From the NCBI GenBank assembly GCA_014728085.1, contig WJMF01000178.1:1-64000 (forward strand): 64,000 nt of DNA, in the 5' to 3' direction. How positions within the stretch are numbered: the stretch's first letter is position 1; every line of letters starts with the position of its first letter. Below the pieces are notes generated by a model. The model was given only the letters and a program-made list of their open reading frames with translations. It was not told the DNA's origin and ran no database searches. Source of the DNA: Candidatus Zhuqueibacterota bacterium (GTDB taxonomy: Bacteria; Zhuqueibacterota; Zhuqueibacteria; Residuimicrobiales; Oceaniaggregativiventaceae). The translations under genes and the position numbers were made by a program. This document shows, one piece after another, positions 7,591 through 61,254 of this stretch.

Positions 7591-7594
7591 ACTG

Positions 7595-8506: not shown

Positions 8507-8512
8507 CAAATT

Positions 8513-14284: not shown

Positions 14285-14354
14285 CACTTTTCTCCCACAT
14301 ATTTACGTATGTTCACTCGACTTCTTGAAATCCTATCATTGATTACGCACTGTG

Positions 14355-15086
14355 TCATCTTGATTCATAGACTTGATTAGCCGACACGTCAGGACTAGTA
14401 ATATATTTTTTAGAGTTTTCATCAAGATAATTCCCCCTAAATATAATTTTTTTTGTATCGGATCCATCTATTTTTGCTAGCACCTCGAGTGAACCAACAG
14501 GGATTGAACCGGATACTATTCCGTCTATAAGAAGATCATCACATTCAACATAGTGCTGTACCCAGGCGGCTGAATTGCGCAGCGTGATATCTTTTATATT
14601 AACAAAATTGCACCTGATGAAACGAATGATATAAGGTCTGTAAAAACCTTTCTTGTGTGGATAGTAAATTTCGTATCCCTGGCCGTCAATTATTCCATCA
14701 CCAATAATTGAAATATTATTGGCTTCTTTGGCAAAAACGAGTGCAGTTCCGAATTTCCGTCCACCGCTATCTACAAATGAACCAAAAGAGGAGTCAAATC
14801 TATTTAGATCGGTTGTGGCTAAAAGTTTGCATCCATTGGACAAGTAGAGAGTGACATTATCTTTCAACACAATCGTGCGAGTTAAAAAATTACCTGCCGG
14901 GAAAAATATGATTCCGCCACCGTTTTCAGCCGCTTTATCGATTGCGGATTGAATTGAGAATGTATTAATAGTTTTTCCATCATTTACAGCGCCATAATCC
15001 GTTATATTATAATATTCTTTGGCTACAAGCACGTTACTATAGAGAATAAACACCATTAACACATAATTAAACCGATTTTTAGTCAA
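14355..15086 (-). pseudogene. GH28-like polygalacturonase with central catalytic region missing
   Basis: The 243-residue product starts with a signal peptide and a typical GH28/pectin-lyase-fold N-terminus (ITDYGAVNDGKTINTFSIQS, IDKAAENGGGIIFFPAGNF, IIGDGIIDGQG, IKDITLRNSAAWVQHYVECD). A normal family member has about 420-480 residues, and after this point contains the catalytic aspartates (NDGID and GDDAI rungs). Here the sequence goes straight from LLIDGI to a C-terminal type segment (KIDGSDTKKIIFRGNYLDEN). The simplest reading is an in-frame internal deletion of around 200 residues that removed the active site. It may be expressed as a non-catalytic binding protein or may be a decaying gene. 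The start codon is TTG with AAGGA upstream. Confidence 0.65.
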
Positions 15087-15181
15087 TTTGAGAATCCTTG
15101 TTTAATTGGAAAATATTCTACACTGATAGTTTTTCTGATTATTATTGCATTTGTGATTATGGTAATATCTGATATTTCTAC

Positions 15182-17310: not shown

Positions 17311-19254
17311 TCATTCTCCGCTTTTAACAGGATCATCATTTGTTGTCTGAATATTATCGATTTCAAAAATACTTGCGCCAACTTTTAAATCAGCACCCGG
17401 CAAATCTTCCTGGTACAAGCCCGGATTACCGGGTTCTCCATCAACGATGAAAGGTCTTACGTCACCGCGCCAGGGTCCGGTTCTAAATACAATTCTCTGT
17501 AAAGACTCTGTTTTGACAGCAAAAGGAATTTTTTCTTTGACCAACTCTTTGTCTACATAGACATCGTAGGATTGAGTTTCACAATCCAGTTTTAACTCGA
17601 TATCCCGCCAATCCCCCACTGAATATTCAACGGGATCAATTTCCAGAGGGCCTCTGTCGAACATAAGCCACTCTTCCGAAAAGAGAAGACGCAGCGGTCT
17701 TTTACCCTTGATATCATGAATTTCAAATTCCAATTTGGCGGAACCGAGCCGGACTTGGTTTATGCTGAATTTGACTGAAAGCTTTTTGCTCGCCGGAATG
17801 AGTTTTTCAACTCGCAGGTAATCACAGGGTTCTTCGTCTGTTAATCTTAGAACGTTATCAGCAGATTGATCATTCTTTGATGTGATTTCGGCAGGGGCCC
17901 ATTTAGGCACATAAAAACTCCACTCTGCTAAATCGGCTATCTCATTGATATCATCAAATGATTCGTTAATGTGCTCATCAGCAATTCCGGTGACGGGAAC
18001 TTTTATTTTCGATATCCAGATATCTTCTTTGTTGACACTATATGTAATCCATATATCATTCCCCGGCGGATTACCATTACCCGGCACAATCCCGCGAATA
18101 TATTGCGGTCCTAAACTTTTATGAATGCCCTGATATCTCAACGGTGGCACTTGACCATTAATGCAAAGCATATCATCAAAACAATGACCATCTTTACCTG
18201 TGATAACAACCAGCGGAAATCGATTTCTCAATGAAGCCGAATGGTTATAAATCAGAGCGTATCTGTTATCCTCCGTTCTCTGTCCCCAGACTTTTGCCCC
18301 GCAGGTTTTAAGAGTAGGACAGGTTGCAATACTTGTCCACGTTTTACCGTAATCTGAACTCAGTGCAGCAAGATTATACTTCCATAACCCAACCACTATA
18401 TCATCAGGTCTTTGATAATAACAAAGCGCCTTAATTACATGTTCACCAATATCAATAGTGTAAAATCCATCTTTAGCTCTATCCATTTCCCACCATTGCA
18501 GAGTTGCCACTTTATCGGCAAGCAAATCCTCACATGCCTGGCGAAATGCCTGATCATCACTTTTTTTGTAAAAGGGGTAATCCGTATTGGTTTCATTCCA
18601 TCCGGCATGCCGGTTATAACGAATAAAGTAAATCGGACCAAATGAGCCGTCTTTATAGATTTCTCTGACAACTCTTCCCGGTCCTTGCCCCAGGTTCGGG
18701 CTATGTCTGGGTGTGGCACAATAACTGTAAAACCCTATTGTAAGAAGTTTACCACTGGGCGCCACATAAAATCCCATCCGCTGATGCATCACTGAAGCCA
18801 TACCTTTCGGTATATATCCAAAGCCGGCATCAATCTCAGGGAGTACATAAACAGGAAAAACAACTTTAGGAGCAGTCCAATCATATCCGTTTTCCGAAAC
18901 AGCAATCAAAGTTCTGCCGGGAGCACCGTGTTCTTCTTTCAAATTACTTAAATACTGCAAATAAAATTTACCATTCCAAAATGTCAACATCGGAGCATGG
19001 CTGTATGTCCACCCAATCAAGCCCCCCTCTGCCGGATTGGAACGGTTGGCTCTAAAGACCTGAAAAGTATGTACACCAACGGCATGCGGTAATTTTCCAT
19101 CATAGAAATACTTGTTTGTTTGACGGTTTCCGATATATTTGACCGGTTCACCTTTGCTTTCTTCTATTGAGGGCGGATACTCTTTTTGAGCCGGAATGCC
19201 AATATTGAAAAACAAAATTACTATTATAATTATCTTTGGAAATAGTTTTCGCAT
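17311..19254 (-). CDS. Secreted beta-propeller protein with C-terminal jelly-roll domain (paralogue of 26470-28428)
   Basis: The 647-residue protein has a Sec signal (IIIIVILFFNIGIPAQ). Residues about 55-430 form a propeller-type domain with HAVGVHTFQVFRANRSNP, RTLIAVSENGYDWTAP, MHQRMGFYVAPSGKLLTIGF, RVVREI followed by FGPIYFIRYNRHAGWNE, and SSDYGKTWTSIA. Residues about 450-640 look like a concanavalin-type jelly roll (KLDCETQSYDVYVDKELV, RIVFRTGPWRGDV). The same two-domain layout and many identical motifs occur in 26470-28428. I know no characterised function. Seven-bladed propellers of this general kind include rhamnosidases and polysaccharide lyases, so a glycan-active enzyme is plausible. 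It is translationally linked to the cupin gene. Confidence 0.7.
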   Translation of the reverse strand: MRKLFPKIIIIVILFFNIGIPAQKEYPPSIEESKGEPVKYIGNRQTNKYFYDGKLPHAVGVHTFQVFRANRSNPAEGGLIGWTYSHAPMLTFWNGKFYLQYLSNLKEEHGAPGRTLIAVSENGYDWTAPKVVFPVYVLPEIDAGFGYIPKGMASVMHQRMGFYVAPSGKLLTIGFYSYCATPRHSPNLGQGPGRVVREIYKDGSFGPIYFIRYNRHAGWNETNTDYPFYKKSDDQAFRQACEDLLADKVATLQWWEMDRAKDGFYTIDIGEHVIKALCYYQRPDDIVVGLWKYNLAALSSDYGKTWTSIATCPTLKTCGAKVWGQRTEDNRYALIYNHSASLRNRFPLVVITGKDGHCFDDMLCINGQVPPLRYQGIHKSLGPQYIRGIVPGNGNPPGNDIWITYSVNKEDIWISKIKVPVTGIADEHINESFDDINEIADLAEWSFYVPKWAPAEITSKNDQSADNVLRLTDEEPCDYLRVEKLIPASKKLSVKFSINQVRLGSAKLEFEIHDIKGKRPLRLLFSEEWLMFDRGPLEIDPVEYSVGDWRDIELKLDCETQSYDVYVDKELVKEKIPFAVKTESLQRIVFRTGPWRGDVRPFIVDGEPGNPGLYQEDLPGADLKVGASIFEIDNIQTTNDDPVKSGE

Positions 19255-19362
19255 ATACTAAATTATCCAAATTTATTGGTTATATAACTTGTTTTTCGTT
19301 TTTAATAACATCTCTGTGAAATATAAATAATAAAAATTCGCATTCAAGTACGAATACTTGAA

Positions 19363-20496
19363 TTATGGCTTCCAAATGGATGCAGCGATATGCTGCTGCG
19401 GATGCTCACTTGTTGCCCAATAATATATGGCTACCAAATTACCCTCTGCGGTTTGTACAATTCTCGGGTAGCCGAGATCTCTCATTCTTCCGGTTTCTGT
19501 TCTGATAAAATCATCCCGAATAACAAATTCGGGTTCCCAGGTTTCTCCATGATCGTTGCTGTATCTTCCAAGTATTTGAAGCGTTGTCCGGTTTCCGTAT
19601 ATTGCGCATAATCTGCCGTCATCAAGTTTAACCAAAGCGGCAGGATTACCGTTGTGTTCTCCTGTATCGCCAACCTTGCTCAAAAATCTCCAAGTATATC
19701 CGCCATCAGTCGATTTGTATGCATCAATCCAGCATTGATTCCTGTCGGAGATATTTCTTCGCCTTGCAACCATAACAAATTCATTTTCGGAAATTTGAAC
19801 CGTATTGGGCATGGCATTTCTATATGGATCTTCACAAGGAACGACCCAGGGTGAAATGATTTCAAACGTCAAACCGCCATCGTTCGTTTTTATAACCGAA
19901 ATGTCATCGGATAATCCCGTACCGTCAATTCGAGACGTAATAAAAATCAAACATTCATTTTCACTCAATACAATGTAATCCGTTCTTGGAGTAAGAATGC
20001 GGGCCTCGAATCTTTTATGTTTATGAATATCCCCAAGGCAAAAAGGGCCATTCCATGTATTTCCTTTATCATAAGAATAATAGAAAGCGCCTTCTGGATC
20101 TTTATTACCGTGATAAGTAGAACCCAATATCCGCATTGCAAAATTTTCATGCTTGAAATTAACGGGTTCTTGTAATTTTGATTTTGTGCCACCATCATCA
20201 ACAAAATTTTCAGGATCAAACATAGTCCATGTTTTTCCGCCATCTTTACTTCGTGTCAGCAGACTTGAAAAAGGCGCATTTTCCTTTATATTGTGACCAT
20301 CAGCTTTTGCATATTCTACCTGGGTAAACCCGACTAGTATTTCATTCCCCCAAACCCAGACACCATTATTAGCAGGCCAACCATGAAAATGATCTTTTTC
20401 AACAGCGGCTATGGTATGTTCAAACTCTGATGGTTGCGCAACAAGACTATACAGAGAAAAAAGAAAAACTAAAATTGACAAATAAAATATTTTCAT
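19363..20496 (-). CDS. Secreted sialidase-like (Asp-box) propeller protein
   Basis: The 377-residue protein has a Sec signal (LSILVFLFSLYSLVAQ) and a single sialidase-type propeller. Asp boxes are visible as SKDGGKTWT, SYDKGNTWN, TNDGGLTFE, STDGGYTWR and SNDHGETWE. It is the stand-alone paralogue of the propeller in 12677-14284, sharing GWPANNG, EILVGF, SENEFVMVARRR-type and LVAIYYW strands, but it lacks the PA14 domain and the lipid anchor. Glycan hydrolase activity is likely from the family, but true sialidase activity is not shown. A BNR protein gene and a LamG protein gene flank it in the same orientation. Confidence 0.82.
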   Translation of the reverse strand: MKIFYLSILVFLFSLYSLVAQPSEFEHTIAAVEKDHFHGWPANNGVWVWGNEILVGFTQVEYAKADGHNIKENAPFSSLLTRSKDGGKTWTMFDPENFVDDGGTKSKLQEPVNFKHENFAMRILGSTYHGNKDPEGAFYYSYDKGNTWNGPFCLGDIHKHKRFEARILTPRTDYIVLSENECLIFITSRIDGTGLSDDISVIKTNDGGLTFEIISPWVVPCEDPYRNAMPNTVQISENEFVMVARRRNISDRNQCWIDAYKSTDGGYTWRFLSKVGDTGEHNGNPAALVKLDDGRLCAIYGNRTTLQILGRYSNDHGETWEPEFVIRDDFIRTETGRMRDLGYPRIVQTAEGNLVAIYYWATSEHPQQHIAASIWKP

Positions 20497-20537
20497 TAAA
20501 TATTCCTTTAGATTTTATTGATATTCCAATCCGGTTT

Positions 20538-23033
20538 TTACTGGTTCAAAAACTGCATAGAATAGAGTTTTGTACCTCTCATTCGAAAAACAAGTTTTAC
20601 CACTTTACCTTCAAGCGGAGAAACATCTTTTGTCGTTTTTACTTTTTTCAATATTTCAGTAGATTCACCTTCACCAATACTCACATCTGTAAATTCCTCG
20701 CGATTTTGAATCCATTCAACTTTTTCATTAATAAAATCACCATTGATGTAAATACAATCATCCACTGAAAAACCTTTAATCGGATTATCATGCGCATCCA
20801 CAAAACCAACCTGGGTATAACCTACCGCATCGGTGTCAATATTGAGAACAAGTCTATTTCCCTCAAAAATAAACGGCTTTGTTTGTATAACTGCTTCTTT
20901 TTCATAGGGACTGTCAATCGATATGAATCCGTCCAGCCTTTGTACCAATCGAAATACGGCTCTCTTGTCATCATACTTTACCCAGGCGGAATGATAATGC
21001 GGTTCAGCAAAATAATACTGCCACAGTTCATTTCCACGCCGGACCATACCATGCGCGATATAGGCTGTTTTTACGTCAATTCCCTCATGCTTTCCAATGG
21101 GAACATAGGCGGGTTGATAATACCTTGTCCAGTTCAGCCCGTTGCGACTCACGGCGATCTGGGTCTCAATCGGCCCGGCGCCCCGCAGTCGTGTCGAATC
21201 TATTAATATCTGCCGTGTCAGCGGTCCATCCTCTTCGTAATGAAAATAGGTGATCGGAAAAGAGATATACGTATCCGGAGCATACTCGTATTTTATAGCT
21301 TTGGTAATATAAATGTCCATTCCAACGGGGTCGTCCAAGGTTGGATCAAAGATGTGCGGAAATTCCAGACCAAAATCACCGGGCGTCAACGGACCATTGT
21401 CAAGCCACCAGGGCTGGGGTTCGCGTAGCCTGTATTTTTTGTCGAGCTTCCAATAGTCGTTTTGGCTTAAAGGTTCATATTTTACAGGTTCGAAAAGATT
21501 TTCAGCTTGAGTAATGACCGTACTTCTTTGAGTGGCGCCGCCCGGTGTGTGAAATATACCGGTCCGGTGGGTTGAAACATACATCTGTCGCTGGTCATCA
21601 TAAAATGTACAGGATTGCGTACCACTTCTAAAGGGTATTAAAGCCATTTTCTGCCGGCTCCAGCTCCAGCCGTCCGCAGAGGTATAAAGATAGACACCAC
21701 GGTTATGATAACTGGATATATATTTCCATCGATGCTTATCTTTGCCATTCGGATCGATAAAAGGGTTGCCTTTACCGCCAACAGGTTCGGCAATAACAAT
21801 ATTATTCCTGCCGCGATATGTTATGCCGGTATTGGGCGCTTTAAAATTCACCCCGTCGCGGGATGTATGAACAATCATATAATCATCATGGGCGGAATTA
21901 TAGATCCGGATTAATCCGTCCTCATCTTCGATAACGGTTAAATGTTTTCTAAAGGGGCCTTTAATGTTCCCGATAACCAGTTCTTTTTTTTCCGGAGGAT
22001 TGACTGTAAACTCGACATCGCCGACGGTCTCAAGAAACGCATCATCGATAAACAGATGTTTTCTGCCGCCCAATTGTATCGGCGTATCATCTTTGGATTC
22101 ATCATCAAACAACAAAGGCGGTCCTTTTGCAAGTTGATCCGCAACGTATCCCTCCTGATAAATACTGGAAAAGCTTGGAGGCGGATTAAATTCATTTGTA
22201 TAAACCGGATCAGCAGAAAATCTCAATTCATCTATTTTGCCTTGCAGAGGATTTTCCCACAGACCATCCCGGCCAATACTCATATAATCTTCTTCAGTAG
22301 ACTCGAGTTTCCTGATCGTGACGTTATTCACCGAGGACAGTAATTTTCCATCCACAAAATGATCAATTTTTTCTTCATCAGCGAAATGCACAAATGCAAC
22401 ATGATGCCACTTTTTAAATGTGAGCTTTGTGGGCAGAGTAACAGTGCTTTGTATCATCGGATTAAGGAAATTAAATGAATTATTCTTTAGATTCAGACTT
22501 AGACGTGTTACTTTTTCATTCTCACCTCTTGGTCCCGCTCCAATTTCAAAGACCGTTCCGGTGTCAGTATCTCGATGTAAATAAAACCAGAATTCTACAG
22601 TCCAGTCAAAATCACCCAGATTCATCGCAGTCGCTGTCGGACGTTTAAATCCAACCTCTTTACGCAAATGTGTTTCACCGCTGGTCATCAAAGCCGCAAA
22701 TTCGGCATTATACCAGGTCAAAGGTGCAATTGTTCGCCCTGGAGGAGGGTCGAGCTTTACAAGTCCGAACTTTCGCTCACCGTCGGGCAGCCTAATTTCA
22801 GGATGCATCAGGGGCTGAAGCGCATTTCCGAATTTGCCCCTAACAATTCTCCCACCCAGACCGAGCACAAGCGGCAGGTTGTGTGCCGAGCTGTTTTCTA
22901 AAACCTGACTCGGGTATAAATCGCATTGTTCATCAAACAGCCAAAGAGAAACAGTATGATCCTCCTTTGGGGCAGATAACAGGGTTACGTAAAAAAATAA
23001 AATGACAGCAAACAACACGTTGTGATTCAACAT
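20538..23033 (-). CDS. Secreted LamG plus five-bladed propeller protein (paralogue of 23054-25495)
   Basis: An 831-residue secreted protein with a signal (VLFAVILFFYVTLLSAP). Residues about 25-290 form a LamG/concanavalin-like module (LGDFDWTVEFWFYL, KKWHHVAFVHFADEEKIDHF, GKIDELRFS). Residues about 320-720 form a GH32/GH43-like propeller region (RKHLFIDDAFLETV, GPFRKHLTVIEDEDGLIRIY, HRWKYISSYHNRGVYLYTSA, PLTPGDFGLEFPHIFDP). A terminal beta domain with NIDTDAVGYTQVGFVD follows. Numerous acidic residues in blade strands are compatible with a glycosidase, but I cannot name the family. The next upstream gene encodes a close relative. The ATG is preceded by AGAGGT. Confidence 0.7.
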   Translation of the reverse strand: MLNHNVLFAVILFFYVTLLSAPKEDHTVSLWLFDEQCDLYPSQVLENSSAHNLPLVLGLGGRIVRGKFGNALQPLMHPEIRLPDGERKFGLVKLDPPPGRTIAPLTWYNAEFAALMTSGETHLRKEVGFKRPTATAMNLGDFDWTVEFWFYLHRDTDTGTVFEIGAGPRGENEKVTRLSLNLKNNSFNFLNPMIQSTVTLPTKLTFKKWHHVAFVHFADEEKIDHFVDGKLLSSVNNVTIRKLESTEEDYMSIGRDGLWENPLQGKIDELRFSADPVYTNEFNPPPSFSSIYQEGYVADQLAKGPPLLFDDESKDDTPIQLGGRKHLFIDDAFLETVGDVEFTVNPPEKKELVIGNIKGPFRKHLTVIEDEDGLIRIYNSAHDDYMIVHTSRDGVNFKAPNTGITYRGRNNIVIAEPVGGKGNPFIDPNGKDKHRWKYISSYHNRGVYLYTSADGWSWSRQKMALIPFRSGTQSCTFYDDQRQMYVSTHRTGIFHTPGGATQRSTVITQAENLFEPVKYEPLSQNDYWKLDKKYRLREPQPWWLDNGPLTPGDFGLEFPHIFDPTLDDPVGMDIYITKAIKYEYAPDTYISFPITYFHYEEDGPLTRQILIDSTRLRGAGPIETQIAVSRNGLNWTRYYQPAYVPIGKHEGIDVKTAYIAHGMVRRGNELWQYYFAEPHYHSAWVKYDDKRAVFRLVQRLDGFISIDSPYEKEAVIQTKPFIFEGNRLVLNIDTDAVGYTQVGFVDAHDNPIKGFSVDDCIYINGDFINEKVEWIQNREEFTDVSIGEGESTEILKKVKTTKDVSPLEGKVVKLVFRMRGTKLYSMQFLNQ

Positions 23034-23053
23034 ATTCAGACCTCTTTTTCACT

Positions 23054-25495
23054 CTATTTATTTATAAATTGCAGGGCGTATAACTTTGATCCTCTCATCT
23101 TGAAAACAAGTTGCACTGTTTTTCCAGCCAGTTTTGATATATCTTTACCTTTATACATCCACTCAATTTCTTTTTTCAAGAAATCGCCATTGATATAAAC
23201 GCACTCATCAACTGCGAATCCTTCTATTGGGTTTCCATTCTCATCCAAAAATCCGACTTGAGCATAGCCTGTCGCATCGGTGTCTATATTTATTGCAAGT
23301 CTGTTGCCTTTAAAAACCAGCGGCTTTGTTATAACCGTTATCTCTTTCTCATAAGGAGAATCGACTGACACAAAACCGTCAGGTCTCTGAACCAGTTTTA
23401 TCACGGATCTTTTTTCATTATACTTTACCCAGGGTGAATGGTAATGCGGTTCACAGAACACATATTGCCAGATTTGGTTTTCACGTTGCACCATGCCATA
23501 GGCGATATAAGCGGTTTTAAAATCAATCCCCTGATGTCTTCCGATGCCGACATACGCGGGCCGTGGATATCTTTGCCAGTCAATGCCGTTGCGGCTTGCA
23601 GAGAATTGAGTCTCAAGCGGCCCGGAGCCGAGCTGTCGGTTCTCATCGCCAAGAGTCCGTCTTTCTTCCGGCAATGATTCTTCATAATGAAAATACATAA
23701 CAGGAAAAGCCACATACGTATCAGGGGCCCAGGCGTATTTATGAGCTTTGGGGACATAAACATCCGTTTCCCGTGGATCGAGGCTATCGATTGGCGAAAA
23801 AATCCAGGGATATTCCAGAGCAAAACCGCCGGGAGTAAGAGGCCCGTTATCAAGATACCAGGGAATGAGTTCAGCAACCCGTTTCCCCTCGGCCCTTTTT
23901 TTTGTTTCAGCCGGAGTAAGAGGATTGAACGGCCAGGGTCTTAATAAATCCTTTGTTTCCGTCATTACAAAGTCGCGCTGAGTATCTCCTGTTCTGGTGC
24001 GGCCGAAATCTGATCTGTGAAATGCCGTATAGACCTGTTTTTGATCATCATAATAAATATTGGCCTGTGAGCCCGAACGGAAAGGCAACACCGGTTGTTT
24101 ATAGCGTTGAAAGCTCAAACCGTCTTTGGAATGGAATATGGAAACAGCCCTGCGGTGATAGTCACTTATATATTTCCAGCGTTGATTGTCAGGCGCATTT
24201 GGATCCAGAAAAACAATCCCCATGCCTACGTTTTCATGCAGAACGATGTTGGTATGACCTTTATAGTGACCCTTTGGCAAATCGGGAGCTGTAAAATGAA
24301 CACCGTCCCTCGAAATCCATACAGCCAAATAGTCATCATCAACCGTGGTATAGATACGAATGTTTCCGTCTTTATCTTCAACAACACTGAGATGTTTTCG
24401 AAAAGGCCCCTTGATATTTTTCATAACGATTTCAGCCATGCGGGGGGGATTGACCACAAATTCAGCTTCTCCGGCTGTTTCAAGAAGGGCATCATCAATA
24501 AAAAGGTGTTTTCTAGAGCCCAGTTTGACAGGTAGAGCCGGTTTATCACCATCGAATAACAGTTCAGGCCCGGCAATCAATTCATTTGTTCTTTCCAGAT
24601 CATGCAGATAAGAAAAACTGGAAGGTGGCGTGAATTTGTCTGTATATATCATACCGTGAGAAAACCGCAATTCATCAATCCGGCCTTGCAGGGGTTCCTT
24701 CCACAGACCGTTTCTTCCCACACTCATATAATCCTGCTCACCCGCAGGCAGTTGTTTCAACTCTGCAGGATTCGCCCGGCTTGTCATCCTGCCATTGACA
24801 AAATGAGTTAAACGGTTTTCTCTTGAATCATATACAAATGCAAGATGCTGCCAAACCTCCGGTTCAAGTGACGAAGGGAGCTCAATCAGAGTTCTGCTCG
24901 GTTGATTATAGAAGATAAACCGGTTCATATCCCGGTCAAGTTTTAATGTTGTATATATCCGGTTCTCACCCCTGGGTCCCGAACCTGTTTCAAAGACTGT
25001 TCCCTTTGCATCCGCTTTGCGCAACGGATAAAACCAGAATTCCACAGTCCAGTCAAAATCACCGAGATTCAGATCTGTCCGGGTAACCCGGGGAAAACCG
25101 ACCTGCTTGCGGAGATGGGATTCTCCGCTCGTCATTAAAGCGGCAAAATCTGCATTGAACCAGGACATCGGTTCAACAGTCCGCCCATCAGGTACGGGTA
25201 TTTTTGTCAATCCAAATCTTACCGCATCCTTGATCTCTACAAAATCAAACTCTGCTTGTCTGACCGGCTCCAACGCATTTCCATATTTACCTTTTACCAT
25301 TTTCCCGCCCGAACCGATCACCATAGGGTAATCATTGTCAGACAAATTGGACAGAACACAACTCGGATAAATACCCTGTTGTTCATCGAATGGCCAGAAA
25401 GCGATTGTGCTTTTATCGGTTTCCCGGGAATTGGTGCTGGTGGTCAGCATAAACAGGATTCCGATTATCAAAAAAACCGTGATTTGTTTCATCAT
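23054..25495 (-). CDS. Secreted LamG plus five-bladed propeller protein (paralogue of 20538-23033)
   Basis: This protein of about 813 residues has the same domain order as its neighbour: signal peptide, LamG module (LGDFDWTVEFWFYPLRK, EVWQHLAFVYDSRENRL), propeller (SRKHLFIDDALLETAGEAEF, GPFRKHLSVVEDKDGNIRIY, QRWKYISDYHRRAVSIFHS) and terminal domain (INIDTDATGYAQVGFLDENG). The two genes are 20 bases apart, so they arose by tandem duplication or serve as a pair. By eye this copy is clearly richer in G+C than the other, which suggests old divergence or separate origins rather than a recent duplication. I placed the start at the ATG at 25495 with AAAGGT upstream; a TTG seven codons earlier is less likely. 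Function unknown, probably glycan-active. Confidence 0.7.
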   Translation of the reverse strand: MMKQITVFLIIGILFMLTTSTNSRETDKSTIAFWPFDEQQGIYPSCVLSNLSDNDYPMVIGSGGKMVKGKYGNALEPVRQAEFDFVEIKDAVRFGLTKIPVPDGRTVEPMSWFNADFAALMTSGESHLRKQVGFPRVTRTDLNLGDFDWTVEFWFYPLRKADAKGTVFETGSGPRGENRIYTTLKLDRDMNRFIFYNQPSRTLIELPSSLEPEVWQHLAFVYDSRENRLTHFVNGRMTSRANPAELKQLPAGEQDYMSVGRNGLWKEPLQGRIDELRFSHGMIYTDKFTPPSSFSYLHDLERTNELIAGPELLFDGDKPALPVKLGSRKHLFIDDALLETAGEAEFVVNPPRMAEIVMKNIKGPFRKHLSVVEDKDGNIRIYTTVDDDYLAVWISRDGVHFTAPDLPKGHYKGHTNIVLHENVGMGIVFLDPNAPDNQRWKYISDYHRRAVSIFHSKDGLSFQRYKQPVLPFRSGSQANIYYDDQKQVYTAFHRSDFGRTRTGDTQRDFVMTETKDLLRPWPFNPLTPAETKKRAEGKRVAELIPWYLDNGPLTPGGFALEYPWIFSPIDSLDPRETDVYVPKAHKYAWAPDTYVAFPVMYFHYEESLPEERRTLGDENRQLGSGPLETQFSASRNGIDWQRYPRPAYVGIGRHQGIDFKTAYIAYGMVQRENQIWQYVFCEPHYHSPWVKYNEKRSVIKLVQRPDGFVSVDSPYEKEITVITKPLVFKGNRLAINIDTDATGYAQVGFLDENGNPIEGFAVDECVYINGDFLKKEIEWMYKGKDISKLAGKTVQLVFKMRGSKLYALQFINK

Positions 25496-25517
25496 TTGAC
25501 CTTTATAACAAGACAAC

Positions 25518-26465
25518 TCAATTCTTTATAAACTCGTGCCGGGTTACGTTTATTAAATTTTTTGTTGTATCAATATCGACCAGGTGAAACGGACTTTTGC
25601 CATTATCGGCAAATGAGTCCGTTTCATAGACCGGGACTGTTTCAAAAAGGTCATCATTCACCCACCTGTGCCCATGACCCACAAATATTCCTTTTATTTG
25701 CTTATGATGTGCTTTAACCAGTGAGAAAAATTGCGGCTCTGTGTCAGGGGTGACAAGGTCTTTTGGCTTGCACCAAATTTTTATATGATCGGTTTTGACA
25801 GGATGATGAAAGAAAAGTAAAACCGGCAGCTCTTTTTGCAATTCCTTTTCCAGCCATTGCATTTGTTGGTCATCAAAAAACCGATCAAGATATCTTCCAC
25901 GCATACTGTTGAGAACCAGTAAATTCCATCCTTTATGTTCAATCGAATAATAGGGTTCAACATCCGCCAATTCATGCCATAGCACTTCCATTGTATCAAT
26001 ATCTTGAAATGAAAAAGGAGCATCGGAATCCCTGTCGCTGTCAATTTTATAATCATGGTTGCCGAGAGCGATATACCAGGGGATTTCAAGCCGGCTTGCT
26101 ATCTGTATAAACTTTGCCGCTCTTTGATTTTCAAGTTCATCCCCCCTATCTCTGAAACGTTGAAAGCTTGATACGACATCACCGGTTATTATGAGCATAT
26201 CCGGATTTTCAAACATCCCGTTATTAACTGCGCTGATTATATCAGCCAGACGTTGATCTTTTGTCTCATCGTTGCTGATATGAATATCACTGAGAATGAG
26301 CAGCGAATAGTCTTTATCAACCGGCTGTTTTCGAGTGTGCGTATTATTCTCACATGATATAAACAACCAGAATATGGCTATAAATACCAGGGTTACTAAT
26401 TGACATGTTTTTGGGCGATTGAACACAGTTGTGACCTCAATTTTTGATTTGACTTTTCCGGCCAA
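25518..26465 (-). CDS. Calcineurin-like metallophosphoesterase lipoprotein
   Basis: The 315-residue protein has all metallophosphoesterase motifs: LSDIHIS, IITGDVVSS, ALGNHDYKID, LFFHHPVK and VGHGHRWVND. The N-terminus contains a membrane segment ending in WLFISCENN, so it is probably a lipoprotein, although the first 20 residues are charged and the start is uncertain. The TTG used here lies four bases after the stop of the preceding propeller gene; a GTG 13 codons downstream is an alternative. It is the second envelope phosphoesterase of the island, after the PhoD-like protein, which suggests that phosphate diesters or esters are part of the substrate or its processing. Confidence 0.87.
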   Translation of the reverse strand: MAGKVKSKIEVTTVFNRPKTCQLVTLVFIAIFWLFISCENNTHTRKQPVDKDYSLLILSDIHISNDETKDQRLADIISAVNNGMFENPDMLIITGDVVSSFQRFRDRGDELENQRAAKFIQIASRLEIPWYIALGNHDYKIDSDRDSDAPFSFQDIDTMEVLWHELADVEPYYSIEHKGWNLLVLNSMRGRYLDRFFDDQQMQWLEKELQKELPVLLFFHHPVKTDHIKIWCKPKDLVTPDTEPQFFSLVKAHHKQIKGIFVGHGHRWVNDDLFETVPVYETDSFADNGKSPFHLVDIDTTKNLINVTRHEFIKN

Positions 26466-26469
26466 ATCG

Positions 26470-28428
26470 TTAATGACTCCGGGTTACAAAATCATCAATC
26501 CAGTAAATAATGGGTTTGACTTTTTGTCCGGAAAAAGGCAGATCTTCACCAAACATTCCAACGGCATCCGGATAACCATCGACGTAATCGAGCGGCACAA
26601 TATTCCTGTACGGACCCGTTCTGAATACGATACGGTTTACATTGCTGACCGGCTCAGCAAAGTCAATGCCTTTTCTTTGCATCTTTTCATCAAGATAAAA
26701 ATCATACGATTGTGAATCACAATCGAGAACGAGCTTGATTTGATGCCATGCCAGCGGTTTCATATCAACACCTTCCAGTTCAACATCTAACAAATCGAAA
26801 CGAACATTATCATGGTCGATGCGCAACCGCGCCGCCCTTTCTCCTGTTTCACTGTGCACCTCAATTTCCAGCGCTTTTCCAAGCCTCACACCATAGGGAT
26901 ATATTCTAAAACTGATCTCGATACGTTGACTCTTTGGGAATATCCTTTCAGCTCGCGCATAATCATAAGGTTCTTCATCTTTGAGTTGTAACACCTTGTT
27001 TATGCCGTCCAGATCATTGACAATATCAATAGATGCCCATTGGGGAACATATAGATTCCAGTAATCCAGTGCATCAGCATGGACGACCGAGTTGAAATTC
27101 TGATCAATATCTTTGGCAACCTTGCCTGTTATAGGTGTTGTTATATTTGCAATCCACATATCTTCTTTATTGTTGCTGAACACAACCCACATTTTATCAC
27201 CGGGTGGATTACCATTTCCTTCAGAAATGCCGCGGAAATACTGAGGGCCAAAATTCTTGTTTAATCCGGTGTAGCGCTGCGGCGGGACTTGTCCGCTGAC
27301 ACATAACATTTCCGTAAATTCATATCCGTCCTCACTTGTCATCACAACCATGGGAAAACGATTTCGCCATGTGGGTGACTGGTTATGAACAAGCGCATAT
27401 CTGCCATCATCCGTTTTTTGGGCCCATGTTTTTGAACCAGCCGTGATCAGCGTGTTATTTTTCGTAATCGACGTCCAGGTATTTCCTTTATCCGTTGTCA
27501 AAGCCGCATACTGATTTTTCCACAATCCCACCACCACACCGTCAGGCCGGGTATACCAGTCAAACGCCTTCCCCGCACCCTTTGACGTGGTAATTTTTTG
27601 ATGAAAATCAAACGCATTTTCAATATTCCCGGGATTAATCGTATAAAAGCCATCGTCAGCCCGATCTTCTTCCCACCACTGCAGGGTCATCAGTTTGTTT
27701 TCCAGGAGAGCGTCACAGGCGTCGATAAACTCCGGCTCATCACTCTCCATATAGAAAGGATATTTTGTATTCCTCTCATTGAAACCGGCATGCCGGTTAT
27801 ATCGAATAAAATAGACCGGCCCAAATGTACCGTCGCTTTTAATTTCTCTGACGACTCGTCCCAAACCTTTACCGACATTAGGAGAATGCTGCGGGTTTTG
27901 ACAGTAACTATAAAAACCCAATGTCAGCAACATGCCGTTCGGTGCAACATAAAAACCCATGCGTTGATGCATAACCGCCGGCATTCCTTCAGGAATATAA
28001 ATATCGTCTCTTTTAATTTCCGGCAATGTATAAACAGGGAAAACCACAGTCGGATCGCTCCAGTTTACTCCATCTTTTGATGTTGATATCGACGTTCGGG
28101 TTGGCGGTGTATGCTCCTGATACAAACCGGACAAATATTGGTAATAAAACCGGTCGTTCCAATAGGCCAGATACGGCTGATGATTATATGTGTAGCCGAT
28201 GCCTCCTTCACCCGGAGGATGTTCTCGGTTCGCTCTTACGACTTGATATTGATGCACACCGACTGCATGCGGCAGCTTGCCGTCAAAATAATGTTTATCC
28301 ACGGTTCGTTTGCCCGAGTAAACAATGGGTTCATTTTTTGATTCTTTTACTCCGGGAGGCATTTTTTGCTGCGAAACGGTCAAACTTGAAATCAGCAGCA
28401 CAAATGAGAGTATTAATTTGTAGATCAT
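26470..28428 (-). CDS. Secreted beta-propeller protein with C-terminal jelly-roll domain (paralogue of 17311-19254)
   Basis: A secreted protein of about 652 residues with a signal (LILSFVLLISSLTVSQQ). It shares with 17311-19254 the segments HAVGVHQYQVVRANREHPP, MHQRMGFYVAPNGMLLTLGF, YFIRYNRHAGFNE, VSGQVPPQRYTGLNK and GNGNPPGDKMW, and the C-terminal lectin-like module with LDCDSQSYDFYLDEKM and RIVFRTGPYRN. The strict conservation of His, Arg and Asn in these stretches between diverged paralogues suggests a catalytic or ligand-binding centre in the propeller. I know no characterised family. ATG at 28428 has GGAAAGG upstream. It lies just downstream of the GntP permease gene. Confidence 0.7.
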   Translation of the reverse strand: MIYKLILSFVLLISSLTVSQQKMPPGVKESKNEPIVYSGKRTVDKHYFDGKLPHAVGVHQYQVVRANREHPPGEGGIGYTYNHQPYLAYWNDRFYYQYLSGLYQEHTPPTRTSISTSKDGVNWSDPTVVFPVYTLPEIKRDDIYIPEGMPAVMHQRMGFYVAPNGMLLTLGFYSYCQNPQHSPNVGKGLGRVVREIKSDGTFGPVYFIRYNRHAGFNERNTKYPFYMESDEPEFIDACDALLENKLMTLQWWEEDRADDGFYTINPGNIENAFDFHQKITTSKGAGKAFDWYTRPDGVVVGLWKNQYAALTTDKGNTWTSITKNNTLITAGSKTWAQKTDDGRYALVHNQSPTWRNRFPMVVMTSEDGYEFTEMLCVSGQVPPQRYTGLNKNFGPQYFRGISEGNGNPPGDKMWVVFSNNKEDMWIANITTPITGKVAKDIDQNFNSVVHADALDYWNLYVPQWASIDIVNDLDGINKVLQLKDEEPYDYARAERIFPKSQRIEISFRIYPYGVRLGKALEIEVHSETGERAARLRIDHDNVRFDLLDVELEGVDMKPLAWHQIKLVLDCDSQSYDFYLDEKMQRKGIDFAEPVSNVNRIVFRTGPYRNIVPLDYVDGYPDAVGMFGEDLPFSGQKVKPIIYWIDDFVTRSH

Positions 28429-29856: not shown

Positions 29857-31026
29857 TTATCGAGCACCTAAATAATGTAACAATAATGTCGGCCATGAAT
29901 AGCTGCCGGGTTTAATCGTCACAAAAAAATGCTCGCGTGATTGTACACGCATTCTAATAACACCCGGAGAAAGTTCTTGAACCGGAAACAATTTTTCAAA
30001 CCCGACTTTTTCCGTGATCGCATAAACGGTGGCTCCTCCATCAATCAATAGCTCGTTAACTTCTACCCGCTGTAAAACAGCATGTACCAATCTTGCCATC
30101 TCTTTTCGTAAACGCACGGGATAATTTTTATCACGAACGACCTGTTGATCTATTTCAATAATGACAACACGATGTTCCCGAAAAGCCTGTACAGCTTTTT
30201 CTTCCCACTTTTTTAAAGATTGCTCCGTATCAGAATCATGATAAAACACGCTATCAGGCATCGGTATTGCTTTTAAAGCACTATTCCTTATACCTTTAAA
30301 CCCGGCTTTTCCCTTTGAATGTGCGCTGCCGCATATAATTAATATATTTTTGCCGAACTTTATGGTTTTCTCTGTTTTTGCAATGACATTTTCATATCCT
30401 TTTATCTCAAGCAAAGCTTTGAAAAATTCGGCTCCACCGGCCGGAAGAATTGTGTTATCAACTTTAAAAGCCCAGTCTTTCAAGTCTTGCTCATATAATG
30501 CCTCACCGATTAATATTCCTTGCCTGGTAATTTTTTGACCGGGCGCTAATACCTGGACATTATTGCGATCATTACCATTTAATAAATCAAGCACATTGGA
30601 TGTGGTTATAGGGTAATCAGGATCATCTGCAAAGCTTGTTTCGTGCAGATATCGATTGTTTAAATAATAGATACCATCTTTTAGAACCCTGCCACGAGAA
30701 GGATTTGCCGGCACCAAAAGGACTTTATCATAAACATCTGCTTTTACTATAGCCCAAAGTTCTTGATAAATATTGCCTCGAAATACCGAATCGGCTTTTT
30801 TAAATGTTATGCCACGACCAAACTTTAATAATTGTTTTGTGATTGAATAAACTTCATCATAAGCATCCTCCGGTTTCATGGATCTCGTATCTGTGGCAAT
30901 AATTAATAAATCAGATTCGGATCGACTATGAACATGCGGTTCAATTTCGACCCCAAGTCCGTATCGTAAACCCAGTCCGGCAATTTCAGCTGCACCAGTA
31001 AAGTCATCTGCAACGACTGTCATCAT
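29857..31026 (-). CDS. Four-carbon acid sugar kinase family protein (DUF1537)
   Basis: The 389-residue protein shows the N-terminal sugar-acid binding start VVADDFTGAAEIAGLGLRYG and the central FKKADSVFRGNIYQEL and VPANPSRGRVLKDGIYYLN segments. It also has the ATP-binding C-terminal half with LIICGSAHSKGK, LIDGGATVYAITE and LSPGVIRM, ending near FVTIKPGSYSWPTLL. DUF1537 kinases phosphorylate D-threonate, D-erythronate, L-threonate or 3-oxo-tetronates at the 4 position. The next gene encodes a PdxA homologue; such pairs convert the phosphorylated tetronate to dihydroxyacetone phosphate and CO2. The exact acid used cannot be told here. The GGDTA-type loop is GGATV in this protein. Confidence 0.9.
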   Translation of the reverse strand: MMTVVADDFTGAAEIAGLGLRYGLGVEIEPHVHSRSESDLLIIATDTRSMKPEDAYDEVYSITKQLLKFGRGITFKKADSVFRGNIYQELWAIVKADVYDKVLLVPANPSRGRVLKDGIYYLNNRYLHETSFADDPDYPITTSNVLDLLNGNDRNNVQVLAPGQKITRQGILIGEALYEQDLKDWAFKVDNTILPAGGAEFFKALLEIKGYENVIAKTEKTIKFGKNILIICGSAHSKGKAGFKGIRNSALKAIPMPDSVFYHDSDTEQSLKKWEEKAVQAFREHRVVIIEIDQQVVRDKNYPVRLRKEMARLVHAVLQRVEVNELLIDGGATVYAITEKVGFEKLFPVQELSPGVIRMRVQSREHFFVTIKPGSYSWPTLLLHYLGAR

Positions 31027-31042
31027 CTTTTCTTTCCATACT

Positions 31043-32080
31043 TTATAATAATTTATGATCGGACATTTTTACTGCATATTTTATTGCCAGCACCAGAGTA
31101 TCTTCTCTGGCTATTCCTTTACCTGCGATATCAAAAGCTGTACCATGATCGACCGATGTTCGAATGATGGGTAAACCCAGGGTAATATTCACACCTGTTA
31201 TGCTCTTCATATTCTTCACCGCCTGATCCCATTGAAAAGCGGCCATCTTGAATGGTATATGACCTTGATCATGATACATAGCAACGCAACCGTCAAAGGC
31301 TCCGGCCTTTGCAATAGCAAATAAGGTGTCAGCCGGACAGGGCCCTTTAGCATTAATTCCCAGCTCTTTCGCTTTTTCGACGGCTGGTAGTATTTCTCTG
31401 ATTTCTTCATCGCCAAACAAGCCACCATCACCTGCATGAGGGTTAAGAGCGGCTATCCCTATTCGGGGTTCAGCTATATCAAATTGTTTGCACGCATTGT
31501 TTAATAATTCAGTTACCTCGACAATTCTTTCTTTTTTTACTGCGTCACATGCTTTTTTTAAGGAAACATGGGTAGAAACGTGAACCACCCGAAAATTTTC
31601 ATCAACCAGGAGCATTGCATATTTTTTTGCTTGAGTAAAGTGGGCATAAATTTCAGTATGCCCGGAAAATCTATGACCCGCCAGGTTTATAGATTTTTTG
31701 TTGATCGGTGCGGTTACAGTGGCATCAATTTCTTTAGCCAGAGCGAGATCAATGACTGTTTTTACACATTGAAATGCAGCTTCTCCAGCCATGGGTGATA
31801 TTTTTCCCATTTCAAGTTTGTCTACATCTATCAGATCAAGAGAGTAAACATGTATTGTATTTCGATCAAATTCGGCTTTGTCAATATTTTCGACTGATTT
31901 AATTTGTTTTTGAACACGTTGCCCGGCAGCGGCTTTTTGAATAACTCTCAAATCGCCTATTATAAGGGGGTTACACCATCCTGTTACTCTGTCATCACAT
32001 AATGCTTTCACAACAATTTCAGGACCTATGCCTGCAGGATCCCCCATTGTGATTCCAATTGTAGGCTTCTTTTTCGCCAT
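31043..32080 (-). CDS. pdxA2: PdxA2-like 4-phosphotetronate dehydrogenase (PdxA family)
   Basis: The 345-residue protein has the complete PdxA pattern: GITMGDPAGIGPEIVVKAL at the start, INLAGHRFSGHTEIYAHF, the metal and phosphate region AALNPHAGDGGLFGDEE, CPADTLFAIAKAGAFDGCV, AMYHDQGHIPFKM and IRTSVDHGTAFDIAGKG. PdxA proper acts in vitamin B6 synthesis. PdxA2 homologues next to DUF1537 kinases oxidise and decarboxylate 4-phospho-D-threonate or -erythronate to dihydroxyacetone phosphate. The context here (kinase 16 bases away, GntP permease beyond) favours the catabolic role. The family assignment is sure; PdxA2 rather than PdxA is inferred from neighbours. Confidence 0.88.
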   Translation of the reverse strand: MAKKKPTIGITMGDPAGIGPEIVVKALCDDRVTGWCNPLIIGDLRVIQKAAAGQRVQKQIKSVENIDKAEFDRNTIHVYSLDLIDVDKLEMGKISPMAGEAAFQCVKTVIDLALAKEIDATVTAPINKKSINLAGHRFSGHTEIYAHFTQAKKYAMLLVDENFRVVHVSTHVSLKKACDAVKKERIVEVTELLNNACKQFDIAEPRIGIAALNPHAGDGGLFGDEEIREILPAVEKAKELGINAKGPCPADTLFAIAKAGAFDGCVAMYHDQGHIPFKMAAFQWDQAVKNMKSITGVNITLGLPIIRTSVDHGTAFDIAGKGIAREDTLVLAIKYAVKMSDHKLL

Positions 32081-33028: not shown

Positions 33029-34174
33029 TCAATAAGCTGCATGATAAATTCTTTTTGCATCCTCGAGAGTAACCTGACGAGGATTGTTTTTCAAAAGTCT
33101 TTCTACTCTCATTGCCGCCTCTGCCAATCTATTAAGAGCAGTTTTGGGGATATTCAGAGCAGAAAGTTTTACCTTTACGTTCAAGGATTCACAAAGTTGA
33201 AATATCATATCCACGCCATTCTTTGCAGTTTCATAATCATCTTTTCCTTCTTCCGCACCCAGTGCCCGGGCAACACTTGCATACCGTTCAGTAGATTCTA
33301 CCATATTGAATTGAATGACATAGGGAAACAAAAGGGCATTGGACAATCCATGCGCTATGTGATATTCACCCCCCAAAGGATAAGATAAAGCATGAACTGC
33401 GGCGGTATTGACAGAGCCAAGTCCAATTCCGCCATAAAGACTGCCAAGAGCAACATTTTGCCGCGCCTTTTCATCATTGCCGTCATTATAAGCACGCCAC
33501 AAAGAACTACCGATTAATCGAATGCCTTCCAAAGCAAACATGTCGATAACGGGATGAGCATAAAGGTTGGTATATTCTTCAATGCAGTGAATGAGTGCAT
33601 CCAAACCAGTGGCCGCAGTAACAGAAGGAGGAACGGTTTTTGTGAACAAGGGGTTCACATATGCTCCATCAGGAACCAGGTAAGGGCTTGTCACTCCTTT
33701 TTTAAGATTGTCACTCTCATCAAGCAATAATGCGTTGGGTGATACCTCACTTCCGGTTCCCGATGTTGTCGGCAGACAAGCCAAATATATTTGCCGTTGC
33801 TTATCAAGGCCACACTCGAGTACCTCCTGAATATTTTGGGCGTTATAAAGCATGGCGGCAATTAATTTAGCAAGGTCTAATACGCTTCCTCCTCCAATAC
33901 CGGCTACACTATCAATGCTTTTCCTTCCGGCAAATTGTAGAGCCTTTTGAAAATCCTCAATAGTTGGTTCGCTGTTGACATCTTCATAGACAAAAACATC
34001 AGCACCATCTGCTTTTATTTTTTGAGCTACAGGATAAATACATTTAAGCAATGGTTCAGCAGTAATCAGCAAAAGCGTTTTACAACCCGTTGTTTTATAA
34101 TCAACAATAAACCGCTCACTGCAACCATTTCCAAATACCAGATTTTTGGGAAAATTGAGAGAAATTGTTCGCAT
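33029..34174 (-). CDS. Iron-containing (group III) alcohol dehydrogenase
   Basis: The 381-residue protein shows the NAD-binding GIGGGSVLDLAKLIAAM, PTTSGTGSEVSPNALL, and metal ligands in TGLDALIHCIEEYTN and HALSYPLGGEYHIAHGLSN. Members reduce aldehydes or oxidise alcohols and hydroxy acids with NAD(P). In sugar-acid clusters they often reduce aldehyde products of aldolases (lactaldehyde, glycolaldehyde, tartronate semialdehyde) or oxidise the entry substrate. Directly downstream is the DapA-family lyase, so reduction of the aldehyde half released by that lyase is a reasonable guess. Confidence 0.9.
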   Translation of the reverse strand: MRTISLNFPKNLVFGNGCSERFIVDYKTTGCKTLLLITAEPLLKCIYPVAQKIKADGADVFVYEDVNSEPTIEDFQKALQFAGRKSIDSVAGIGGGSVLDLAKLIAAMLYNAQNIQEVLECGLDKQRQIYLACLPTTSGTGSEVSPNALLLDESDNLKKGVTSPYLVPDGAYVNPLFTKTVPPSVTAATGLDALIHCIEEYTNLYAHPVIDMFALEGIRLIGSSLWRAYNDGNDEKARQNVALGSLYGGIGLGSVNTAAVHALSYPLGGEYHIAHGLSNALLFPYVIQFNMVESTERYASVARALGAEEGKDDYETAKNGVDMIFQLCESLNVKVKLSALNIPKTALNRLAEAAMRVERLLKNNPRQVTLEDAKRIYHAAY

Positions 34175-35659: not shown

Positions 35660-35750
35660 AATAAAATTCCTGATTTCAAAAATTCGAATTAATCCCCCCA
35701 AAAACCGGGGCGCAGTTGGCCATTGCCGGTAATTGGGGGGTATCAGAGGA

Positions 35751-61243: not shown

Positions 61244-61254
61244 TTTATAACCTC

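What the first reader, a model, noticed from the sequence alone, without database searches (positions are those of the whole stretch)
17311..28428. Duplicated secreted architectures point to new glycan-active families
Seen: the propeller/jelly-roll pair (17311-19254 and 26470-28428) and the LamG/propeller pair (20538-23033 and 23054-25495) share strictly conserved His, Arg, Asn and Tyr motifs such as YFIRYNRHAG and RKHLFIDDA despite wide divergence. Paralogous pairs also occur for sialidase-like, sulfatase and DapA-family proteins. Conserved polar motifs in propellers normally mark active centres.
Basis: partly seen in the sequence, partly recalled or inferred. Interest (0 to 1): 0.55.

Follow-up and report, generated by a model that had tools for sequence, protein, structure and literature searches.

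The report
Gene cluster for eating sugar DHA
Two of the paired secreted proteins belong to a known enzyme family thought to cut the rare plant and algal acid sugar DHA off polysaccharides, and the genes beside them look like a pathway, not found in the papers searched, that breaks that sugar down for food.

Summary
The pairs are real. The 17311/26470 pair (50% identical) is not a new family: both match Pfam's BT_1020 N-terminal propeller (E~1e-96), and copy b the solved BT1020 structure 5mqr (435 bits; DHA hydrolase GH143 of RG-II, activity recalled). Fifteen near-invariant polar residues that I checked are kept in BT1020; the quoted motif YFIRYNRHAG is not. The LamG pair (20538/23054) has no Pfam propeller; its model (pLDDT 77) has the propeller fold of GH43/62/130/137 enzymes, so a new family remains possible.

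The stronger finding lies next door. Fe-alcohol dehydrogenase, DapA-type aldolase, PdxA-like dehydrogenase, C4-acid kinase and transporter genes recur with GH143. In 288 sampled Verrucomicrobiota all 12 genomes with strong GH143 carry the kinase (9 of 276 others do); in 11 of 12 it lies within 5 kb of GH143 with the other three enzymes. By hand stereochemistry, aldol cleavage of DHA gives pyruvate plus D-threuronate; reduction gives D-threonate, the substrate of the known kinase/PdxA2 route. I propose a DHA catabolic pathway. Against: 18 of 21 GH143 Bacteroidota and 6 of 11 in the own phylum lack the kinase type, two module genomes lack strong GH143, nothing is assayed.

The parts
17311..19254 (-). 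GH143-type secreted propeller + sialidase-like CBM domain, copy a
   Evidence: PF24067 E 5.8e-96, PF22585 E 3.1e-25; hydrophobic N-terminus
26470..28428 (-). GH143-type secreted propeller + sialidase-like CBM domain, copy b
   Evidence: PF24067 E 1.6e-98; 5mqr_A BT1020 435 bits over residues 33-625
20538..23033 (-). LamG + propeller protein, copy a
   Evidence: PF13385 only; relatives in the same setting in L012, L109/L110, L204
23054..25495 (-). LamG + propeller protein, copy b
   Evidence: model m1a4be3092541 of residues 318-820, pLDDT 77, pTM 0.81; Z 17-19 with glycosidase and phosphorylase propellers
19363..20496 (-). sialidase-like BNR protein with relatives beside GH143
   Evidence: PF13088 E 3e-14; relatives near GH143 (e.g. 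L010, L012, L019, L021, L022, L026, L027, L034)
25518..26465 (-). metallophosphoesterase with hydrophobic N-terminus
   Evidence: PF00149 E 4e-16; beside LamG relatives in L012, L023, L204
28445..29761 (-). GntP-family acid permease, candidate uptake
   Evidence: PF02447 E 5e-114
29857..31026 (-). DUF1537 four-carbon acid sugar kinase, candidate D-threonate kinase
   Evidence: PF07005 E 3e-33; best NCBIfam D-threonate kinase 105 bits, cut-off 450 not reached; ADD, KxDSxxRG and GGxT residues kept in 30 module members (their role recalled)
31043..32080 (-). PdxA-like dehydrogenase, candidate D-threonate-4-phosphate dehydrogenase (decarboxylating)
   Evidence: PF04166 E 5e-107; 2hi1 304 bits, 6e85 named D-threonate 4-phosphate dehydrogenase 281 bits
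32091..33032 (-). DapA-family aldolase, candidate DHA aldolase
   Evidence: PF00701 E 1e-40; GTTGE, Y143 and K171 kept in 31 module members
33029..34174 (-). iron-type alcohol dehydrogenase, candidate D-threuronate reductase
   Evidence: PF25137/PF00465; D192, H196, H261, H275 kept in 31 module members (metal-ligand role recalled)
1025..2587 (-). sodium:solute symporter; relatives adjoin the module elsewhere, candidate DHA uptake
   Evidence: PF00474; module neighbour
34193..35848 (-). sulfatase next to the module
   Evidence: PF00884 E 1e-53
35751..38543 (-). TonB-dependent outer-membrane receptor
   Evidence: PF00593, PF07715, PF13715
40531..41538 (-). LacI-family regulator, probable end of the cluster
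   Evidence: PF00356; same relative place in L109 and L217

Best explanation
The region (about 1025-41538) is a locus for using glycans that contain 3-deoxy-D-lyxo-hept-2-ulosaric acid (DHA). Outside the cytoplasm, sulfatases, propeller enzymes and the two GH143-type hydrolases release DHA (shown: homology; inferred: activity). A sodium symporter and/or the GntP permease import it (inferred). In the cytoplasm the DapA-type aldolase splits DHA into pyruvate and D-threuronate, the Fe-alcohol dehydrogenase reduces this to D-threonate, the DUF1537 kinase makes D-threonate 4-phosphate, and the PdxA-like enzyme oxidises and decarboxylates it to dihydroxyacetone phosphate and CO2 (all four reactions inferred). 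The last two steps are the established D-threonate route; the first two are new assignments. The LamG pair are glycosidase-like propeller proteins acting on the same glycan (inferred).
For: GH143 membership. Chosen by GH143 alone, 80 loci include 4 with FeADH, DapA1, PdxA2 and DUF1537 all in the fetched flank and 13 with at least one, one of these weak. In 9 of the 10 genomes where DUF1537 lies in the GH143 locus it is the only copy found, as in the window's own genome. Of 45 other DUF1537 places I fetched 20, mostly the weaker-scoring, shorter type: 11 have all four genes, 13 at least three. Verrucomicrobiota sample of 288: strong GH143 (E<1e-40, a line drawn after seeing the table) in 12, all 12 with DUF1537 against 9 of 276 others, Fisher p 5e-16; in 11 of 12 the two domain matches are 1.7-4.5 kb apart, each time with all four genes, versus 0 of 9 genomes with DUF1537 but no strong GH143, one neighbourhood each (p 3e-5). 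Own phylum: both in 5 of 82, p 8e-4. Catalytic residues kept. The hydrolases have hydrophobic N-termini, the four enzymes do not (simple scan). Hand stereochemistry gives D-threonate, not L-threonate or erythronate.
Against: No assay. In the sample around L061's genome (Bacteroidota, 395) 18 of 21 strong-GH143 genomes lack this kinase type: 12 have no DUF1537 and 6 only a longer one (four long-type neighbourhoods fetched lack the module; DapA1/FeADH were not searched by themselves). In the own phylum 6 of 11 GH143 genomes have no DUF1537, at 70-99% completeness. Two genomes carry the module without strong GH143 (G491, G593). Kinase and PdxA scores stay under NCBIfam's equivalog cut-offs, the D-threonate kinase match covers only residues 2-162, and a 3-oxo-tetronate kinase model matches the whole length with 76 bits. 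DapA, Fe-ADH and PdxA families are broad. Fisher values ignore relatedness of genomes. BT1020's DHA hydrolase activity is recalled; the paper is not held.
Confidence: 0.72

Rival explanations
1. The hydrolases release Kdo or another ulosonic acid, and the module handles that sugar.
For: Kdo accompanies DHA in RG-II and in green-algal walls (passages, PMC12168206, PMC7693365); the DapA superfamily includes sialic-acid and keto-deoxy-sugar aldolases.
Against: Kdo cleavage would give pyruvate and D-arabinose (recalled chemistry), which needs neither a C4-acid kinase nor PdxA2; yet both are tightly linked to GH143.
Confidence: 0.12
2. The kinase/PdxA pair serves free D-threonate or 4-hydroxythreonine salvage and sits beside GH143 only because carbohydrate genes cluster.
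For: DUF1537 kinases are known for these roles (passages, PMC10971088); control regions L133, L135, L136 and L117 carry PdxA and DUF1537 without DapA1/FeADH.
Against: Those four control genomes have no strong GH143; with strong GH143 in Verrucomicrobiota all four genes plus GH143 sit together in 11 of 12 genomes.
Confidence: 0.1
3. The propeller pairs are general glycosidases of a pectin or sulfated-glycan locus with no DHA specificity.
For: Sulfatases, a GH28-like fragment and other propeller genes around; no activity data.
Against: 435-bit match to BT1020 with the checked near-invariant polar residues kept and the pathway linkage.
Confidence: 0.06

Closest known systems
GH143, BT1020 N-terminal domain of Bacteroides thetaiotaomicron (PDB 5mqr)
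   Same: Same propeller + sialidase-like CBM architecture, 435 bits for copy b, checked near-invariant polar residues shared
   Different: No C-terminal (alpha/alpha)6-type domain (PF22422; GH142-like, recalled), which is fused in relatives L057 and L088 and has no convincing match in the window's genome (best E 6e-4, 24% identity); RYNRHAG loop differs
D-threonate catabolism: DtnK (DUF1537) + PdxA2
   Same: Both enzyme types adjacent, catalytic residues kept
   Different: Scores below NCBIfam equivalog cut-offs; here preceded by a DapA-type aldolase and Fe-ADH and tied to a glycosidase
D-glucarate/galactarate pathway, GarL-GarR-GarK (recalled)
   Same: Same logic: aldolase to pyruvate plus a semialdehyde acid, reductase, kinase
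   Different: One carbon more, unrelated aldolase and reductase families, extra oxidative decarboxylation by PdxA2
Propeller enzymes of GH43, GH62, GH130, GH32 and BT0996 (GH137, recalled)
   Same: Predicted fold of the LamG pair's propeller, Z 17-19
   Different: 7-13% identity, no sequence family match; extra N-terminal LamG and a C-terminal beta-rich part

Membership tests
GH143 (BT1020-like N-terminal propeller) | Sequence match to PF24067 above its curated cut-off | tested here: met
   321 and 330 bits, cut-off 27
GH143 (BT1020-like N-terminal propeller) | Homology over the whole propeller and CBM of the characterised BT1020 | tested here: met
   copy b against 5mqr_A residues 24-594, E 4e-129; copy a through its 50% identity to b
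GH143 (BT1020-like N-terminal propeller) | Near-invariant polar residues of the family present | tested here: met
   R67, Y83, H85, E107, R158, R193, R196, E197, K306, R359, Y399, R401, N422, K423, D425, also in the BT1020 alignment; which of them are catalytic was not established
GH143 (BT1020-like N-terminal propeller) | Hydrolysis of the DHA glycosidic bond | not testable with these tools
   needs enzyme assay; BT1020's own activity is recalled
D-threonate kinase DtnK (NF047819) | Score above curated equivalog cut-off | tested here: not met
   104.7 bits over residues 2-162, cut-off 450; best NCBIfam hit, next 3-oxo-tetronate kinase 75.9 over 2-376, cut-off 350
D-threonate 4-phosphate dehydrogenase PdxA2 (NF002891) | Score above curated equivalog cut-off | tested here: not met
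   332.7 bits, cut-off 583; a PdxA model NF002992 scores higher (375.9, cut-off 470); above cut-off only for the general pdxA model TIGR00557 (356.5 vs 290.35)
PdxA family | Metal-binding histidines and lysine kept (roles recalled) | tested here: met
   H141, H215, H270, K128 near-invariant in 29 members
DapA/NanA class I aldolases | GTTGE carboxylate motif, Tyr and Schiff-base Lys (roles recalled) | tested here: met
   G54-E58, Y143, K171 near-invariant in 31 members
GH43/GH62/GH130/GH137-type propeller fold (LamG pair) | Same propeller fold | tested here: met
   model pLDDT 77; Z 19.1, rmsd 3.6 over 258 residues with 9gph_A, Z 18.2, rmsd 3.7 over 275 with 5mt2; blades were not counted
GH43/GH62/GH130/GH137-type propeller fold (LamG pair) | Catalytic acid residues in the central pocket | not tested

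The most novel reading that the evidence does not exclude
Bacteria of at least five phyla share a dedicated DHA catabolic pathway (aldolase, reductase, D-threonate kinase, PdxA2) that is redox-neutral and yields pyruvate plus dihydroxyacetone phosphate; and the LamG/propeller proteins, which accompany the module even in a genome without a strong GH143 match (L204), are the founders of a new glycoside hydrolase family acting on DHA-containing glycans such as RG-II or green-algal scale and theca polysaccharides.
Probability: 0.35. Interest if true: 0.75.

Novelty: new variant of a known kind. Interest (0 to 1): 0.6.

Why it matters
DHA is a component of RG-II, present across plants, and of prasinophyte scales and Tetraselmis theca (abstract and passages of PMC12168206; passages of PMC10762512 and PMC7693365). 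A 2025 review tabulates the enzymes that make it in plants as unidentified (PMC12168206), and my literature searches listed no account of how microbes use it. A compact operon of five or six genes makes the question testable in one set of assays, and offers a genomic marker for organisms that consume DHA-containing glycans. It also gives a concrete substrate context for an unassigned propeller family.

Tried and rejected
Rejected: 'new family' for the propeller/jelly-roll pair. Rejected: YFIRYNRHAG as a family signature. Rejected: the pair as a recent local duplication; copies a and b fall in separate subclades of a 37-row clade (quick tree). Not settled: RG-II versus algal glycan; the genome has no convincing GH142-like domain and a single DUF1537, and the cluster has sulfatases, but I did not test the other RG-II families. 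Longer DUF1537 copies 7-50 kb from GH143 in seven Bacteroidota genomes may be 3-oxo-isoapionate kinases of apiose use (recalled; a paper search on the term gave nothing on point).

Led nowhere: PF15892 (BNR_4) search of the own genome, six matches, all on other contigs; full-length LamG model (pLDDT 52); viral-contig scan, whose 62 matches lie almost wholly in the LamG part; BFVD search, mostly unnamed or phage proteins; PDB sequence search with LamG copy b, no hit; HpcH/HpaI protein at 10074, only weak hits; sialidase-like 19363, only weak hits. Literature searches listed no paper on DHA catabolism as far as titles and opening abstracts show; the library holds open-access papers only.
Full report
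Observation. The four ORFs and both motifs are present. The pairs are 50% and 52% identical by BLAST, so shared long motifs are unsurprising. Pairing of sialidase-like (40%) and sulfatase (29%) genes is real; the two DapA-family proteins are only 22% identical.

What the propeller/jelly-roll pair is. Both match PF24067 (BT_1020-like N-terminal propeller) and PF22585 (sialidase-like CBM) far above cut-off, and phmmer with copy b finds one solved relative, 5mqr/5mqs (E 4e-129). From memory, this is BT1020 of B. thetaiotaomicron, the RG-II enzyme whose propeller is the DHA hydrolase GH143 and whose C-terminal domain is the beta-L-arabinofuranosidase GH142 (Ndeh et al. 2017, not held). The tools agree with that layout: fused relatives L057 and L088 carry an MGH1-like glycoside hydrolase domain after the propeller and CBM, and a co-occurrence study groups GH137, GH138, GH139, GH142 and GH143 and suggests RG-II debranching as the reason (passages of PMC7922503). 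In 109 GH143-like rows, some of them the same gene fetched twice, 66 columns are at least 97% conserved. Of the polar ones I compared fifteen with the BT1020 alignment (R67, Y83, H85, E107, R158, R193, R196, E197, K306, R359, Y399, R401, N422, K423, D425) and all are kept. YFIRYNRHAG is conserved only in part, and BT1020 reads YFIYYNH. The tree (102 rows, quick method) puts copies a and b in different subclades, so the duplication is probably old.

What the LamG pair is. Pfam sees only the LamG domain, and copy b has no sequence relative in the PDB. A model of residues 318-820 from 12 sequences reached pLDDT 77 and pTM 0.81. Its propeller matches glycosidases and phosphorylases of the GH130, GH62 and GH43 kind at Z 17-19 with 7-13% identity (Foldseek E down to 1.6e-10). 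The 8th row is BT0996 (5mt2); that it is the GH137 beta-L-arabinofuranosidase of RG-II, and that these propellers have five blades, is recalled. In the own phylum the LamG protein occurs in 8 of 82 genomes, 6 of which are among the 11 with GH143 (p 3e-5). It lies near the metabolic module described below in L089, L096, L101 and L105 and in L204, whose genome lacks strong GH143.

The metabolic module. Directly upstream in transcription order, on the same strand, lie Fe-ADH, DapA-type aldolase, PdxA-like dehydrogenase, DUF1537 kinase and GntP. I took GH143 as the only bait (556 relatives found, the best 80 kept) and then asked what else is there. All four core genes were within the fetched flanks in 4 of 80 loci (L019, L022, L026, L027) and at least one in 13 of 80, one of these weak (L046); many loci are cut by contig ends. 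I then searched DUF1537 genome-wide in 50 of the 80 genomes: 35 have it; in 10 it is inside the GH143 locus, and in 9 of these it is the only copy found. One search lists 55 matches; of the 45 outside those loci I fetched 20, leaning to the weaker-scoring, shorter type that resembles the window's, so this is not a random draw. All four genes were there in 11 and at least three in 13; the rest had one or two genes, partly on short contigs, or none (L106, L108).

Independent samples. Own phylum, 82 genomes: GH143 in 11, DUF1537 in 8, both in 5 (one-sided Fisher p 8e-4); in 4 of the 5 the two domain matches are within 4 kb, and the fifth (G123) has the four genes on a 4.4-kb contig (L099, fetched as G015; G123 and G015 report the same places). 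In one of the 5 (G095, L111) no Fe-ADH was found. Six of the 11 GH143 genomes have no DUF1537 (completeness 70-99%). Verrucomicrobiota, 288 genomes: 32 have some PF24067 match, 12 a strong one (E<1e-40, a line drawn after seeing the table). All 12 have DUF1537, against 9 of the other 276 (p 5e-16). In 11 of 12 the matches are 1.7-4.5 kb apart. I fetched 10 of the 11 and had the eleventh as L019; all have the four genes. Six (L122, L123, L124, L126, L127, L131) read symporter, Fe-ADH, DapA, kinase, PdxA, GH143 in one run. The exception, G291, has GH143 at the edge of a 6-kb contig. Phylum of L061's genome (Bacteroidota as the tool groups it), 395 genomes, threshold 1e-40: GH143 in 21, DUF1537 in 17, both in 9 (p 1e-8), but only 3 of 21 (G004, G042, G450) have this module; 12 have no DUF1537 and 6 only a longer copy.

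Controls. Of 20 DUF1537 genomes without strong GH143 in the three samples I fetched one neighbourhood each of 15 (3 of 3, 9 of 9, 3 of 8): Fe-ADH and DapA1 were present in 2 (L203, L204) and absent in 13. G141's second DUF1537 copy was not fetched. L204 has the LamG pair next to the module; L203 has a GH127-type gene and a GH43 match just under cut-off. These two are exceptions to GH143 linkage, though a weaker GH143-like gene in them is not excluded.

Chemistry. DHA is 3-deoxy-D-lyxo-hept-2-ulosaric acid. Worked out by hand: retro-aldol cleavage between C3 and C4 leaves C5 and C6 as the two stereocentres of a C4 aldehyde acid, which is D-threo; reduction gives D-threonate. DtnK as the D-threonate kinase of DUF1537 is stated in passages of PMC10971088; the PdxA2 step to dihydroxyacetone phosphate is recalled, and 6e85 is named D-threonate 4-phosphate dehydrogenase. 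The sum is DHA to pyruvate, dihydroxyacetone phosphate and CO2 for one ATP, redox-neutral. Kdo, the obvious rival, would give D-arabinose and leave kinase and PdxA unexplained. The residues recalled as catalytic in the four enzymes are conserved across 29-31 module members. In a simple hydrophobicity scan the GH143, LamG, sialidase-like and sulfatase proteins have hydrophobic N-termini, as do the membrane proteins, while the four enzymes do not. In NCBIfam the kinase and PdxA score below the specific equivalog cut-offs, so substrate names are inferences.

Extent and setting. G092 keeps most of the cluster in the same order, nearly all at 72-93% identity (DapA2 55%): LacI, TonB receptor, sulfatase, module, GntP, GH143b, LamG pair, 19363, GH143a, cupin, then the 11061 to 1025 genes; the genes 12677 to 16510 were not found there (L109, L110). 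Its LamG and GntP ORFs are split, perhaps by assembly errors. A Melioribacter MAG has most of the cluster too, with one GH143 in the fetched stretch and no GntP (L012, L217). Record titles place the core module in KSB1, Ignavibacteriota, Verrucomicrobiota, Planctomycetota and Bacteroidota. The own phylum is probably KSB1, since G123 matches the KSB1 MAG of L023. The glycan is undecided: RG-II contains DHA (passages, PMC12168206, PMC12282258), and so do prasinophyte scales and Tetraselmis walls, the latter reported with 17% Dha and 54% Kdo in T. suecica (passages, PMC10762512, PMC7693365). The genome lacks a convincing GH142-like domain, and sulfatases plus a sulfatase-activator gene lie in the window, which leans to a sulfated algal source but does not prove it.

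Verdict. The propeller/jelly-roll pair is a new member of a known family. The LamG pair is an uncharacterised propeller family. The cluster most likely encodes release and breakdown of DHA through a pathway I could not find described.

Noticed in passing
window 41545 and 41613: Two TAACGTTTT direct repeats 68 bp apart just upstream of the LacI gene, possible operators.
   Followed up: no
window 10074-11048: HpcH/HpaI-like protein with a hydrophobic N-terminus (possibly secreted), only weakly similar to solved aldolases; relatives lie with the beta-helix gene 11061 near the module in L096 and L101 and, in L204's genome, in L219.
   Followed up: partly
window 6508-9337: 6508 (no Pfam family above cut-off), DapA2 and FAA-hydrolase genes form a second set with relatives in L012 and L013 and in part in Bacteroidia loci L049 and L072; perhaps for a companion sugar such as Kdo.
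   Followed up: no
L018 2266-3834, L019 8328-9830: Weak, divergent matches to the LamG-pair propeller profile lie between the DUF1537 kinase and GH143.
   Followed up: partly
L109, L110: LamG, GntP and some other ORFs of the syntenic cluster in G092 are split by frameshifts or stops.
   Followed up: no
window 45117-49685: 1522-aa ORF with a dockerin type I match near its C-terminus.
   Followed up: no
window 60359-61330: Sulfatase-modifying factor (FGE-like) gene in the same window as the sulfatases.
   Followed up: no
L206-L209 and the genomes behind them: A longer DUF1537 kinase lies 7-50 kb from GH143 in 7 Bacteroidota genomes; perhaps an apiose-pathway kinase (recalled).
   Followed up: partly
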